NCBI RefSeq assembly: GCF_015665295.1
Contig: NZ_JADFAJ010000030.1
Span: 1 to 42,220, forward strand
Direction: 5' to 3'
Origin: Maricaulis sp.
GTDB lineage: Bacteria; Pseudomonadota; Alphaproteobacteria; Caulobacterales; Maricaulaceae
DNA: 42,220 nt
Of the stretch, positions 8,240 through 39,040 are shown in pieces. A program made the translations under genes and the position numbers. Positions within the stretch are counted from its first letter, which is position 1; the number at the start of each line of letters is the position of its first letter. The notes under the pieces are model-generated. The model was not told where the DNA came from, searched no databases, and saw only the letters and a program-made list of their open reading frames with translations.

Positions 8240-8310
8240 GGCGGGCGCAACAGCCGTTTCCGGCTCTCCGCCCCGCATTTGCGCGGCTGCGGTCGGGAAA
8301 AATGGAATCC

Positions 8311-9049
8311 TTTCCTCCCCACATCGTGGGGAGGTGGCGCGCCCGAAGCGCGGGACGGAGGGGTGCCGCCGCGGGCGGCATGGGTCACGCCACGTACCAT
8401 CCTCGCTCCGCTCGGACCCCATCGACCCTCCTTCGCCAAGGCTACGGAGGGCCACTTCCCCACATCGTGGGGAAGAAAAGTGCGCGCTTATCCCGTTTGT
8501 GCACGCCTTCCTTCTCCCTTGGGAGAAGGTGGCCCGGAGGGCCGGATGAGGGGGATTTGTTCCGCGTTCACCGGGATTTACCCCTCACCCTGACCCTCTC
8601 CCGGGGGCGAGGGAAAGTGTGAGCCGACAACAAAAATCACAAAACTTATCCCTGCCCGTCAAACCTGGCGGATAATCCCCCTGTCCCGCGTCACTCGAGG
8701 CCCGGATTGGTGATCCGGGGGCGTTGGGAGGACGGAGCTCGTCCGGTTGCCTGGCATCACCACCAGACCAACCCGGCGTGGCCATCGGCAGGACGGCGGC
8801 ACAAAGCTCGACCGTTTGTCCCTGTCGGTTTCGAGACGGGGCCGGTAACGGCCCTGACCAAATCTCCGTGTGCGGGGTGCCCGAGGTGCCCATCCACACA
8901 AGACAATAGCCAAACCGGCATCGGCCGGGACCCCGCACCCCTCATCCCGCCAGGTGGAAACACCGTGGCGAGATTGGTGCTGTGCGGGGGACAGGTATGA
9001 TTAACGCCGCATCGCGCGTTAATCATACCTGTCCCCCGCTTGGCGCTGA
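8311..9049 (+). repeat. 0.7 kb intergenic repeat, copy A (inverted partner at 38337-39040)
   Basis: This non-coding stretch matches the reverse complement of 38337-39040. The match is close over about 8399-8983; the segment 8360-8398 is divergent. It is built from hairpins: CCTCCCC/GGGGAGG (8314-8332), TTCCCCAC/GTGGGGAA (8456-8474), CCTTCTCCC/GGGAGAAGG (8508-8527) and CCCGGAT/ATCCGGG (8701-8719). Such short palindromes are typical of REP-like intergenic elements. Several long open frames occur on both strands, but they are open in competing frames in both copies and look like no protein. Copy A alone carries a palindromic insertion at 8984-9039. With that and 8240-8310 this accounts for the gene-free stretch before 9120. 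Confidence 0.85.
8984..9039. repeat. 56-bp perfect hairpin inserted in repeat copy A
   Basis: A perfect 24-bp inverted repeat (arms 8984-9007 and 9016-9039) around an eight-base loop. Each arm begins GCGGGGGACAGG and ends in ATTAACGC. In repeat copy B the corresponding position holds only about seven bases between the shared CTGT and TGGCGCTGA. CTGT occurs at both edges (8980-8983 and 9029-9032). This looks like insertion of a small palindromic element, perhaps a REP-type or miniature element, or a regulatory hairpin. Confidence 0.8.
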
Positions 9050-9055
9050 CGCCAC

Positions 9056-9087
9056 AAAAAAAGCCCCGGCCTGGGTCAGGCCGGGGC
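9056..9087 (-). terminator. rho-independent terminator of the Gly/Asn-rich protein gene
   Basis: On the minus strand GCCCCGGCCT (9087-9078) pairs with AGGCCGGGGC (9072-9063) around a short loop, followed by seven T. It lies 32 bases after the stop of the gene at 9120. Confidence 0.88.
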
Positions 9088-9119
9088 AGTCGGTGGATGA
9101 TGATTTGAAAGCGTCTTGA

Positions 9120-10010
9120 TCAGCGATAACCGCCGACGCCGCCGTCCAGCATGAGGGTCATGGAGACGGTCTGGCTGCGTTCGCGCTCGACTTCGCGGCG
9201 GACCCGCTCGGTGTATCGCTCCTCGCGGCGCATGAAGACCATTTTCACACCCGGTCCGTGCATGCGCAGAAGCGAGCGTTCATTGCAGTTTCGCCGCGGG
9301 ATCTGGGTTTCGCAACGCAGATTGCCGCCAGCCGAATGACGCAGGGCCTCGCCCTTGCGGCACATGATGGTCGGGGCGTCGTCCCAGTCATGGACACCGT
9401 CAATGACCCAGCCGATCGTGGTCTGCATCGCCGTGCCGGCCATGCAGCGGAAGATCTCGCCGTCGAAGGTGGCTCCGACGCGATCTTCGGCATCGACGCG
9501 GGAAGCCGGATGCGGCGTGCCGTTATCGTCGACACAGACAGCGCGCACGACGCGCCATTCCTCGACCCAGCGGGTTCGCTCTTCCTCGTAGTATTCGTAT
9601 TCGGACTCGGTCTCGACACCGACCACGTTGAGACCGGTGATCGCGGTTGCGGCGGGCGCTGTCGTCATCGGCGTGTAGGAGCCACCGCCGATGAAGGTCA
9701 CCGCGCCGGCGCCGGCCCGGGCACCGGCCCCGGCATTGGCGTTCGCCGACGCATTGACATTGACATTGGTGTTCACATTGACCCGCGTCGAGACATTCAC
9801 GCCGACATTGATATTGCCGCCATGGATGTTGATGTTCGGGACATTGACCGTGTGGCCACCACCATGCGTACAGCAGGACGGCGGAGGGGGCGGCGGCGTG
9901 CAGCATCCACCGCCACTGCCGCCGCCTCCACCGGCCGAAGCCGGGGCAGCAAACAGGGCGAACGCAGCGGTCGCTGGAATCAGAAAAGCGTGCCGGGCTG
10001 AAACGCGCAT
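9120..10010 (-). CDS. Gly/Asn-rich exported protein of unknown function
   Basis: A 296-residue protein I do not recognise as a named family. Visible parts: signal peptide about 1-26 (cleavage near APASA); Gly-rich run with two Cys pairs flanking six Pro (CCTPPPPPPSCC, about 36-47); a strictly alternating Val/Asn segment (VNVPNINIHGGNINVGVNVS and on to about 90); an Ala/Gly linker; then a Cys-containing C-terminal domain (about 130-296) with YEYYEEERTRW, FDGEIFRCMAGT and a charged region MRREERYTERVRREVERER. The alternating strand-like region resembles the composition of HfaA/HfaD and of curlin-type proteins, which suggests a surface or fibre role, but this is inference. The ATG at 10010 has AAGGAG seven bases upstream; the frame is open to 10163 without a signal peptide. 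Confidence 0.78.
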   Translation of the reverse strand: MRVSARHAFLIPATAAFALFAAPASAGGGGGSGGGCCTPPPPPPSCCTHGGGHTVNVPNINIHGGNINVGVNVSTRVNVNTNVNVNASANANAGAGARAGAGAVTFIGGGSYTPMTTAPAATAITGLNVVGVETESEYEYYEEERTRWVEEWRVVRAVCVDDNGTPHPASRVDAEDRVGATFDGEIFRCMAGTAMQTTIGWVIDGVHDWDDAPTIMCRKGEALRHSAGGNLRCETQIPRRNCNERSLLRMHGPGVKMVFMRREERYTERVRREVERERSQTVSMTLMLDGGVGGYR

Positions 10011-10216
10011 GGTCGTGCTCCTTACGTATTGCCCCCGACCCTGCAAAGGCAGGGCCAGTTCGCGGCCCCACCCCGGAACGCCGGTTTCGCGCCGCCGATG
10101 AGTGGCGCTCGCCGCCATTCCCGCCACAGGCGTATGGCCCCGTTCTTGAACCGGGACAGGCATGAGCGGCGCGCGCCATGCCGCGATCAGCCGAAACGAA
10201 ACGAGTGGAGACGTCC

Positions 10217-24242: not shown

Positions 24243-24247
24243 GCAAG

Positions 24248-24283
24248 CGAGACGGGCGCTGCCGGGCGGCAACGCCCGTCTCG
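24248..24283. terminator. shared hairpin between convergent nitroreductase and queF genes
   Basis: CGAGACGGGCG (24248-24258) pairs with its exact complement at 24273-24283, and TGCC/GGCA extends the stem inside. There is no long T tract on either side. It may act as a bidirectional terminator or transcript-end stabiliser. Confidence 0.55.
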
Positions 24284-24302
24284 GTTCTGCAAACCGGACC
24301 GG

Positions 24303-32005: not shown

Positions 32006-32026
32006 GAAGGGTGAAGGGTGAAGGGT
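32006..32026. repeat. three tandem GAAGGGT units next to tRNA-Leu
   Basis: GAAGGGT is repeated three times head to tail (32006-32026) and abuts the encoded CCA end of the tRNA gene. The surrounding 31870-32025 region holds nothing else recognisable. Confidence 0.8.
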
Positions 32027-32112
32027 GGTGCGGGCGGCCGGACTTGAACCGGCACGACCTTGCGGTCGACAGATTTTAAGTCTGCTGCGTCTACCGATTC
32101 CGCCACGCCCGC
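32026..32112 (-). tRNA. tRNA-Leu (anticodon TAA)
   Basis: On the minus strand the sequence begins GCGGGCGTGGCGGAATCGG and ends in the T-arm GGTTCAAGTCC, acceptor complement CGCCCGC and encoded ACCA. The anticodon arm reads CAGACTTAAAATCTG, giving anticodon TAA. The long variable arm (GTCGACCGCAAGGTCGT region) is the class II form expected for leucine. Length is 87 bases with CCA. No integrase or duplicated 3' end is seen nearby, so it is not an occupied integration site within this window. Confidence 0.97.
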
Positions 32113-36510: not shown

Positions 36511-36540
36511 AAGAGCCGCGCCCCAGGGCGCGGCTCTTTT
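36511..36540 (+). terminator. rho-independent terminator of the TonB-dependent receptor gene
   Basis: A 12-bp stem (AAGAGCCGCGCC, 36511-36522, with its complement at 36527-36538), a four-base loop and TTTT. The stem is symmetric and may also serve the convergent VWA gene, although the minus side has only a weak T tract. Confidence 0.88.
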
Positions 36541-38336: not shown

Positions 38337-39040
38337 TCAGCGCCAGATGGGGACAGCACCAATCTCGCCACGGTGTTGCCACCTGGCGGGATGAGGGGTG
38401 CGGGGTCCCGGCCGATGCCGGTTTGGCTATTGTCTTGTGTGGATGGGCACCTCGGGCACCCCGCACACGGAGATTTGGTCAGGGCCGTTACCGGCCCCGT
38501 CTCGAAACCGACAGGGACAAACGGTCGAGCTTTGTGCCGCCGTCCTGCCGATGGCCACGCCGGGTTGGTCTGGCGGTGTTTCCAGGCAACCGGACGAGCT
38601 CCGTCCTCCCAACGCCCCCGGATCACCAATCCGGGCCTCGAGTGACGCGGGACGGGGGGATTATGGGGCGCTCGGGACGGGCAGGGATAAGTTTTGTGAT
38701 TTTTGTTGTCGGCTCACACTCTCCCTCGCCCCCGGGAGAGGGTCAGGGTGAGGGGTAAATCCCGGTGAACGCGGAACAAATCCCCCTCATCCGGCCCTCC
38801 GGGCCACCTTCTCCCAAGGGAGAAGGAAGGCGTGCACAGTGTCGGATAAGCGCGCACTTTTCTTCCCCACGATGTGGGGAAGTGGCCCTCCGTAGCCTTG
38901 GCGAAGGAGGGTCGATGGGACCGAGCGTAGCGAGGAAGGCGAAGCGAGGTGGCCGCAAGCGCGGAAAAGCCCCACCGCCTGCGGCGGCCCCTCCGTCCCG
39001 CCCTTCGGGCGCGACACCTCCCCATGGAATGGGGAGGAAA
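38337..39040 (-). repeat. 0.7 kb intergenic repeat, copy B (inverted partner at 8311-9049)
   Basis: This stretch is the reverse complement of copy A. Shared landmarks in reverse order are CCTCCCC/GGGGAGG with a different loop (39016-39037), TTCCCCAC/GTGGGGAA (38863-38881), CCTTCTCCC/GGGAGAAGG (38807-38826) and CCCGGAT/ATCCGGG (38618-38636). It begins 101 bases upstream of the VWA lipoprotein start and ends four bases from the cinA stop codon. It lacks the 56-bp hairpin of copy A. Together with 38236-38336 this fills the gap between the VWA lipoprotein and cinA. No protein function is supported, although a 117-codon frame is open in both copies. Confidence 0.85.

What the first reader, a model, noticed from the sequence alone, without database searches (positions are those of the whole stretch)
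8311..9049. Inverted 0.7 kb repeat pair 30 kb apart, built of hairpins
8311-9049 and 38337-39040 are reverse complements of each other, closely matching over most of their length, and lie in opposite orientation at both ends of a 29 kb block. Both are non-coding, consist of several nested palindromes (CCTCCCC/GGGGAGG, TTCCCCAC/GTGGGGAA, CCTTCTCCC/GGGAGAAGG, CCCGGAT/ATCCGGG), and each adjoins a gene end. Recombination between them would invert 9-38 kb. Small REP-like palindromes are known in Proteobacteria; a composite of this size, with a divergent central patch, is worth describing. Whether it is mobile, structural or regulatory is inference.
Basis: seen in the sequence. Interest (0 to 1): 0.7.

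Follow-up and report, generated by a model that had tools for sequence, protein, structure and literature searches.

The report
Dispersed, swappable, RNA-like intergenic repeat
The two mirror-image stretches are two copies of a widespread non-coding repeat built from exchangeable parts, whose largest part keeps the same complicated fold while its letters change, and whose copies seem to overwrite one another.

Summary
Confirmed: 8311-8983 (+) and 38353-39040 (-) match at 91.8%, but this is no two-copy duplication; the genome search gives 58 matches, the query included. The unit holds palindromic modules I and II, a linker with two boxes at near-fixed spacing, and module III (~290 bp). II's palindrome is widespread in bacteria. 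III has no Rfam match at gathering; one subtype is seen in 18 of 19 genomes of the genus, probably Maricaulis, and III in one genome each of two further genera. Two diverged main subtypes share one multibranched, covarying fold that favours the + strand. Across four species III keeps site and orientation, yet the subtype differs at 7 of 13 sites, and copies mostly resemble same-genome copies more than orthologues. Best reading: an old, once-mobile repeat whose settled copies overwrite each other by gene conversion, with selection on III as RNA or single-stranded DNA; A was probably overwritten from B. The 29-kb block keeps its orientation in 8 of 9 testable relatives; the ninth, G010, is rearranged there and elsewhere carries a 1.28-Mb inversion with II-III at both ends. 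Function and enzyme are unknown.

The parts
8311..8480 (+). copy A, module I: palindromic repeat with end palindromes and an exchangeable side hairpin
   Evidence: (fold z -5.9)
8488..8493 (+). copy A, first TTATCC box (start of the cassette slot)
8504..8620 (+). copy A, module II: palindromic cassette of the slot; other cassettes take its place at other sites
   Evidence: (fold z -4.1)
8645..8678 (+). copy A, linker boxes CTTATCC - spacer - ATAATCC in front of III
8697..8983 (+). copy A, module III (subtype IIIa), multibranched RNA-like element
8730..8871 (+). copy A, central domain of III as matched by covariance model R1
8948..8970 (+). copy A, 3' terminal hairpin of III with a bulged purine
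8984..9040 (.). module IV: separate GGGGACAG...CTGTCCCC palindrome, only in A, not part of the shared unit
38857..39040 (-). copy B, module I
38844..38849 (-). copy B, first TTATCC box
38716..38831 (-). copy B, module II
38658..38691 (-). copy B, linker boxes CTTATCC - spacer - ATAATCC
38353..38639 (-). copy B, module III (subtype IIIa)
38465..38606 (-). copy B, central domain of III as matched by R1

Best explanation
A and B are two copies of a dispersed, modular, non-coding element. SHOWN: II (or another palindromic cassette) sits in a slot in front of III, in the same direction, between TTATCC boxes, at many sites; III exists as subtypes with one common fold; many copies sit at sites shared between species, yet their content differs and is more alike within a genome than between orthologues; inverted II-III copies lie at both ends of a large inversion in one single-contig relative. 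INFERRED: the element once spread as a mobile unit. Settled copies are now rewritten by homologous recombination (gene conversion, occasionally crossing over) with other copies, and copy A received its II-III from copy B or a close copy in this lineage. III's fold is kept by selection on a single strand, either an RNA transcribed in the + direction or a folded DNA strand recognised by an unidentified protein.
For: 58 matches in the genome, the query included. Slot: II directly before III on the same strand in 42 of 66 copies; of 17 others read by eye, 13 hold another palindrome, 3 a short stretch, 1 a partial II that is also among the 42; the same layout in another genus. Fold: 23 of 66 predicted pairs of 26 IIIa copies change on both sides. 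A model trained on IIIa finds 31 of 31 IIIb copies (E<=1.7e-7); on these hits 23 of 37 pairs change on both sides against 2-12 when slid; for the 3' domain 18 of 24 against 3-6. Strand: G-U 76 cells vs A-C 16, and 76 vs 17. Sites. Homogenisation: in 17 of 22 same-subtype orthologue pairs both members have a closer copy in their own genome, in 3 only one does, in 2 neither; the trees need 8 changes of genome label each vs shuffled means 13.9 and 17.1, 0 of 200 as low. A, B and a third copy of this genome group with the G018 copy at site B, 96/93, while site A in G018, G016, G015 and G010 holds IIIb. Inversion. Mobility: G317 has six copies, 91-99% like one of them, in unrelated flanks, while III of that query matched in none of 7 congeners that matched its flanks.
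Against: No transcript evidence. No mobilising enzyme found, and only Y1_Tnp was looked for; no clear target duplication seen by eye in G317. Gene conversion is inferred from patterns, not observed. The A4/A5 alignments are fitted to the model's structure and lean towards it; one IIIb copy (L178) fits the 3' model poorly (E=0.27), one helix-2 pair is unpaired in 30 of 32 rows with letters, another in 18 of 31, and one helix-6 pair in 22 of 31. On helices common to both strands' folds the G-U excess is clear for IIIa (56 vs 11 cells) but weaker for IIIb (55 vs 34). On its own sequence III folds only moderately better than shuffles (z -2.1). Two orthologue pairs behave like plain vertical inheritance.
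Confidence: 0.68

Rival explanations
1. Ordinary non-autonomous transposon (MITE or REP type): the folds are kept only because a transposase must recognise hairpins in DNA; no RNA or cellular role.
For: Intergenic, multi-copy, patchy outside the genus, similar copies in unrelated flanks in G317; side hairpins exchanged whole while the stem stays. REP doublets (REPINs) are reported to show compensatory changes too (PMC3116915, passages read). Five of 22 genomes do have Y1_Tnp genes, among them G010, which has the near-identical IIIb copies and the inversion.
Against: No Y1_Tnp in 17 of 22 genomes checked, including the window's and both outlier genera; no clear target duplication noticed; ~290 nt multibranched fold; many copies sit at old shared sites.
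Confidence: 0.35
2. The covariation is made by mutation, not selection: template switching in imperfect palindromes copies one arm onto the other, and recombination shuffles whole hairpins.
For: Side hairpins of I and II are exchanged in one piece; modules are mosaic; palindrome-rich DNA.
Against: This model predicts no preference of G-U over A-C, but G-U cells exceed A-C cells (weakly for IIIb); the long-range helix that closes the central domain also covaries (helix 1, 4 of 5 pairs).
Confidence: 0.12
3. A programmed or frequent 29-kb inversion switch between A and B.
For: Inverted orientation, about 99% II and III identity; the family does lie at inversion ends in G010, and G010 is broken at site B.
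Against: Same relative strand of the end genes in 9 of 10 genomes with both on one contig, the window's included; five of those nine (G016, G012, G001, G003, G014) show no II-III at site B, so no pair to recombine. An invertase gene was not searched for.
Confidence: 0.03
4. Simple segmental duplication of one non-coding stretch.
For: Two very similar copies on one contig.
Against: 58 matches in the genome, query included; IIIb alone matches in 18 of 19 genus genomes, some of these matches partial.
Confidence: 0.02

Closest known systems
REP / REPIN elements with RAYT transposases
   Same: short intergenic palindromes, compensatory changes in hairpins, clusters of mixed units (PMC3116915, passages)
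   Different: no Y1_Tnp in the window's genome; II-III unit of roughly 500 bp with a ~290-nt multibranched domain; II and III in fixed order
Rhizobium-specific intergenic mosaic elements (RIME) and similar rhizobial palindromes
   Same: named in PMC2573895 (passages) as repetitive intergenic elements of unknown function with conserved sequence and secondary structure; that RIME1 is ~108 bp with two large palindromes is recalled
   Different: could not be compared letter by letter (primary paper not held); I know of no counterpart of module III
CIR elements of Caulobacter (CcrM-associated intergenic repeats)
   Same: strictly intergenic repeats of Caulobacter (PMC10969869, passage); that they are over 100 bp is recalled
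   Different: A and B contain no GANTC site
TIRYT-type terminal repeats (consensus GGGGWSAS)
   Same: module IV holds GGGGACAG, which fits the consensus printed in PMC3733652 (passage)
   Different: no Y1_Tnp gene in this genome; IV is not part of the shared unit
BOX elements of streptococci (recalled)
   Same: modular box order with a variable middle (recalled, not tested)
   Different: different organisms and sizes (recalled); no test made

Membership tests
REP/REPIN-RAYT system | RAYT (Y1_Tnp, PF01797) gene in the genome | tested here: not met
   0 in the window's genome; 5 of 22 genomes checked have one: G003, G005, G009, G010, G012
REP/REPIN-RAYT system | GTAG (or CGTC) tag at the palindrome's foot | not tested
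   no systematic test made
CIR elements | CcrM site GANTC within the repeat (name; the site sequence is recalled) | tested here: not met
   0 in A, 0 in B; 63 in the 42,220-base window, so about one expected per copy
RIME elements | sequence similarity to RIME1/RIME2 | not testable with these tools
   primary paper not held; module II's palindrome pattern occurs in many Rhizobiales records
MITE | target-site duplication at insertion | tested here: inconclusive
   six G317 copies aligned with flanks, no clear duplication by eye
MITE | terminal inverted repeats; related autonomous element or transposase with the same ends | not tested
   no scan for transposases other than Y1_Tnp
Rfam families | match above gathering score | tested here: not met
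   only a tRNA in the window; 24 sub-threshold matches over 8240-9100, the only one lying mainly on III at E=2.4
Structured RNA or ssDNA element (works-like) | covariation beyond shuffled and slid controls | tested here: met
   (0 of 500 shuffles as high on every measure)
Structured RNA gene | transcription | not testable with these tools
   no expression data; a two-box spacing upstream is suggestive only

The most novel reading that the evidence does not exclude
Module III is a previously undescribed mobile structured RNA of the window's bacterial family: transcribed from the two-box linker, folded, and spread or rewritten in place by homing (its product replaces resident copies, including whole subtypes), so that ancient sites are kept while their content is continually swapped.
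Probability: 0.17. Interest if true: 0.87.

Novelty: new variant of a known kind. Interest (0 to 1): 0.6.

Why it matters
Mosaic palindromic repeats are common in bacteria, but how they are maintained is poorly understood. Here conserved sites, swapped subtypes, a swappable slot and an RNA-like fold occur together in species two of which have single-contig genomes, so one can ask directly whether such elements live by transposition, by gene conversion, or by function. It also gives a concrete case of a dispersed non-coding repeat at both ends of a megabase inversion.

Tried and rejected
Segmental duplication (rejected by copy number). RAYT mobilisation as a general explanation (not excluded for the five genomes that have the gene). 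CIR membership (no GANTC). Known Rfam family. Coding sequence: no frame of III open in all copies; the best frame is open in 7 of 24 IIIa and 14 of 31 IIIb. Sigma-70 promoter in the linker: 54 of 56 copies show a CTTATCC-like string and 48 of 56 an ATAAT-like string. Of the 48 with both, the gap is 20-21 bases in 42 and 19 in one; in 5 the script took a later CCTGTCC string, so no gap was measured. The gap is too long for the usual spacing (recalled), so the boxes are left unexplained. Carriage on plasmids or phages: no match to a IIIa query. Paper searches for DNA strings and for the genus with structured RNA or repeats gave nothing to the point in the listings. CIR and RIME primary papers are not held. 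The terminal hairpin with a bulged purine recalled domain VI of group II introns; dropped because Rfam shows no such match.

Weak points of the counts. The identity figures include 15 bases of downstream flank. The list was cut off, so further copies exist. Subtype was assigned by the better profile score, while III is mosaic and 'IIIa' includes a distant group (L145, L150, L151, L170). The gene calls come from a home-made codon score. Searches used stricter filters and scored at most 8 candidates a genome, and R1 matches by construction the genomes it was trained on. A4 and A5 include 3 and 9 weak or reverse-strand matches (one of the nine is L178); one search left all of these out, searches did not.

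Full report
OBSERVATION. The window (a whole contig, C25, of a 3,161,875-base draft genome in 44 contigs) holds an inverted pair, 8311-8983 (+) and 39040-38353 (-), 91.8% alike. The named palindromes are at 8314-8334, 8456-8474, 8510-8529 and 8701-8719. A search of the whole genome with 8240-9060 gives 58 matches, the query itself and copy B among them and most of the rest partial, so the pair belongs to repeat families.

ANATOMY. Partial copies split the unit into module I (8311-8480), module II (8504-8620) and module III (8697-8983), joined by linkers; a fourth palindrome, 8984-9040, occurs in A only. I and II fold far better than shuffles (z -5.9 and -4.1), III moderately (z -2.1). I and II carry a side hairpin that is exchanged whole. 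In II there are 14 distinct inserts: 8 have a stem of at least 4 pairs (shuffled 4%), 5 a stem of 3, one a stem of 2. In I, 10 of 10 have at least 4 (shuffled 21%). On the right arm of II, 4 of 9 inserts form such a stem and the other 5 are three-base links.

SLOT. I fetched 64 regions round III copies in four genomes: 16 in G015, 18 in G010, 16 in G018, 14 in G000. With the two window copies these give 66 copies of III. Module II stands directly before III, on the same strand, in 42 of 66. Of 17 loci read by eye, 13 hold instead a ~130-bp palindrome beginning CCGTCATCC and ending GGATGACGG, 3 a short stretch, and one a partial II (counted in the 42); 8 copies, mostly truncated, were not read. 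TTATCC-like boxes bound the slot. Module I is looser: it lies upstream in most cases but downstream in L149. Of 56 copies with at least 250 bp of III, 54 show a CTTATCC-like string and 48 an ATAAT-like string in the linker, 20-21 bases apart in 42 of these 48. The same layout with other letters occurs in G317, a different genus of the family.

FOLD OF III. RNAalifold on 26 IIIa copies from 12 genomes predicts 66 pairs, 23 with changes on both sides. A second subtype, IIIb, was found by reading the orthologous sites. A covariance model of the central domain made from IIIa only (R1; 21 of the 26 rows) finds 31 of 31 IIIb copies at E<=1.7e-7; the 3' model (R2; 22 rows) finds 30 of 31 at E<=5.3e-5, the last at 0.27. 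On the R1 hits (34 rows, 3 of them weak) 91% of cells pair and 23 of 37 pairs change on both sides; sliding the partner gives 2-12 such pairs and 34-49% paired. For R2 (39 rows, 9 of them weak) the figures are 95%, 18 of 24, 3-6 and 39-46%. G-U cells outnumber A-C cells 76:16 and 76:17 on the strong IIIb rows (the structure came from the + strand of IIIa, which favours G-U somewhat). On helices found on both strands they do so 56:11 (IIIa) and 55:34 (IIIb). The 3' hairpin has at least two letter versions of the same shape, with a bulged purine. So the fold is shared, and the + strand seems to be the one that folds.

SPREAD. IIIa by DNA: 12 of 41 genomes, all 12 among the 19 of the window's genus, 0 of 22 outside. 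IIIb by DNA: 18 of 19 genus genomes, some matches partial; G002 has none. R1 over the order: 18 of 398 genomes, 16 of them of this genus (most of these were in its training set) and one each of two other genera of the family (G227 with 7 matches, G317 with 6). R1 over a sample of the class: only the window's own genome of 385. G317's six copies lie in unrelated flanks and are 91-99% like the one used as query; III of that query matched none of the 7 other genomes of that genus, each of which matched a flank; one of them, G160, has a 38-base match to the cassette part. The genus is probably Maricaulis: among the 80 listed stretches with module II's palindrome, only one, of Maricaulis alexandrii, has III behind it, while a second Maricaulis stretch has not. 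The 3,368,780-base single-contig relative fits the size of M. maris MCS10 (recalled).

SITES. Flanks of the 66 copies were compared (at least 330 bases, E<=1e-20, same side, same orientation). Thirteen sites are linked by both flanks in at least two of the four genomes, and 16 counting one-flank links. The subtype differs between species at 7 of the 13 (8 of 16). Site A holds IIIa in G000 and G006 and IIIb or a IIIb-like mosaic in G018, G016, G015 and G010, each time shortly before the neighbouring gene's terminator-like hairpin. Site B holds IIIa in G000 and G018, IIIb in G015 and G006, and neither in G016 nor in the five more distant species that I read (G012, G001, G003, G007, G014). In 17 of 22 same-subtype orthologue comparisons both members are closer to another copy in their own genome; in 3 only one is; in 2 neither is. 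The trees need 8 changes of genome label each, against shuffled means of 13.9 (IIIa) and 17.1 (IIIb), 0 of 200 as low; the 7 G010 IIIb copies in the tree form one clade, 98/96, while three sites (S2, S3, S13) still pair copies of different species. This is concerted evolution at fixed sites. A groups with B (95/64), then with a third copy of this genome (L180; 88/77), then with the site-B copy of G018 (96/93), so copy A most simply received its IIIa from B or a close copy. II and III of A and B are about 99% alike while module I is 80%, as expected of a conversion tract that starts inside I.

REARRANGEMENT. The genes at the two ends of the 29-kb block keep their relative strand in 9 of 10 genomes with both on one contig, the window's included. 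In G010 they lie 611 kb apart on opposite strands, and behind the site-B gene, after flank shared with G018, comes a ~40-base piece matching the 3' end of many III copies. G010, a single-contig genome, has another event too. The site X-III-Y of G015, G018 and G000 is split into X-II-IIIb-Z (764,871, +) and W-II-IIIb-Y (2,049,476, -), while W and Z are neighbours in G000, G015, G018 and G006 (gaps of 0.5-1.9 kb, read whole, no module) and lie 7 kb apart in G016 (3.2 kb of the gap read, no module). That is an inversion of 1.28 Mb with inverted II-III at both ends. One end lacks III in the other species, so either a copy was inserted there first or the event itself brought one.

CONTEXT. Of 66 copies, 61 have a called gene on both sides: 26 between convergent genes, 18 sense-tandem, 11 antisense-tandem, 6 between divergent genes. 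The element seems to avoid promoter regions, as REP-like repeats do (recalled); the genome-wide shares of gap types were not computed.

KNOWN KINDS. It works like a mosaic intergenic repeat family. It fails the tested defining feature of REP/RAYT systems in this genome (no Y1_Tnp; 5 of 22 genomes have one, G010 among them) and of CIR elements (no GANTC). RIME could not be compared. Rfam has no match at gathering. Papers: passages of PMC2573895, PMC10969869, PMC3733652 and PMC3116915 were seen. The statement that III is undescribed rests on Rfam and on the paper searches only.

MECHANISM. Shown: slot and order of II and III, shared fold, fixed sites, subtype differences, homogenisation, one inversion with copies at both ends. 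Inferred: past mobility, gene conversion as the exchanger, selection on an RNA or single DNA strand. Unknown: the mobilising enzyme and any function.

Noticed in passing
window 8984-9040: Near-perfect palindrome GGGGACAGGTATGATTAACG...CGTTAATCATACCTGTCCCC; it fits the GGGGWSAS consensus printed for TIRYT terminal repeats (passage), though the genome has no Y1_Tnp gene; related palindromes occur elsewhere in the genome.
   Followed up: partly
L191 and L141: Two further copies of III join flanks that are separate in other species (G000 L191: left as G018 L173, right as G018 L172; G015 L141: left as G018 L165, right as G018 L177); possible further rearrangements at III, or in the draft G000 a misassembly.
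   Followed up: no
L085, behind the site-B gene of G010: A ~40-base piece of III's 3' end follows flank shared with G018, so the rearrangement of the window's own region in G010 has a III remnant at the break.
   Followed up: partly
contig ends in G016, G014, G003, G006: Several copies of III lie within a few hundred bases of contig ends, so this element probably breaks short-read assemblies of the genus.
   Followed up: no
loci L138, L147, L150, L165, L168, L169, L172-L174, L176-L179 in front of III: A ~130-bp CCGTCATCC...GGATGACGG palindrome with its own side hairpins occupies the slot of module II; it looks like another dispersed repeat family.
   Followed up: partly
window 9120-10163 (-): Protein with glycine- and proline-rich low-complexity stretches, no Pfam match at E<=0.001, found in 18 of 19 genus genomes.
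   Followed up: no
window 24245-24286 and 36511-36538: Two more palindromes; the second lies between convergent genes and is probably a terminator.
   Followed up: no
window 32026-32112 (-): tRNA-Leu(UAA) gene, the only RNA gene found in the window.
   Followed up: no
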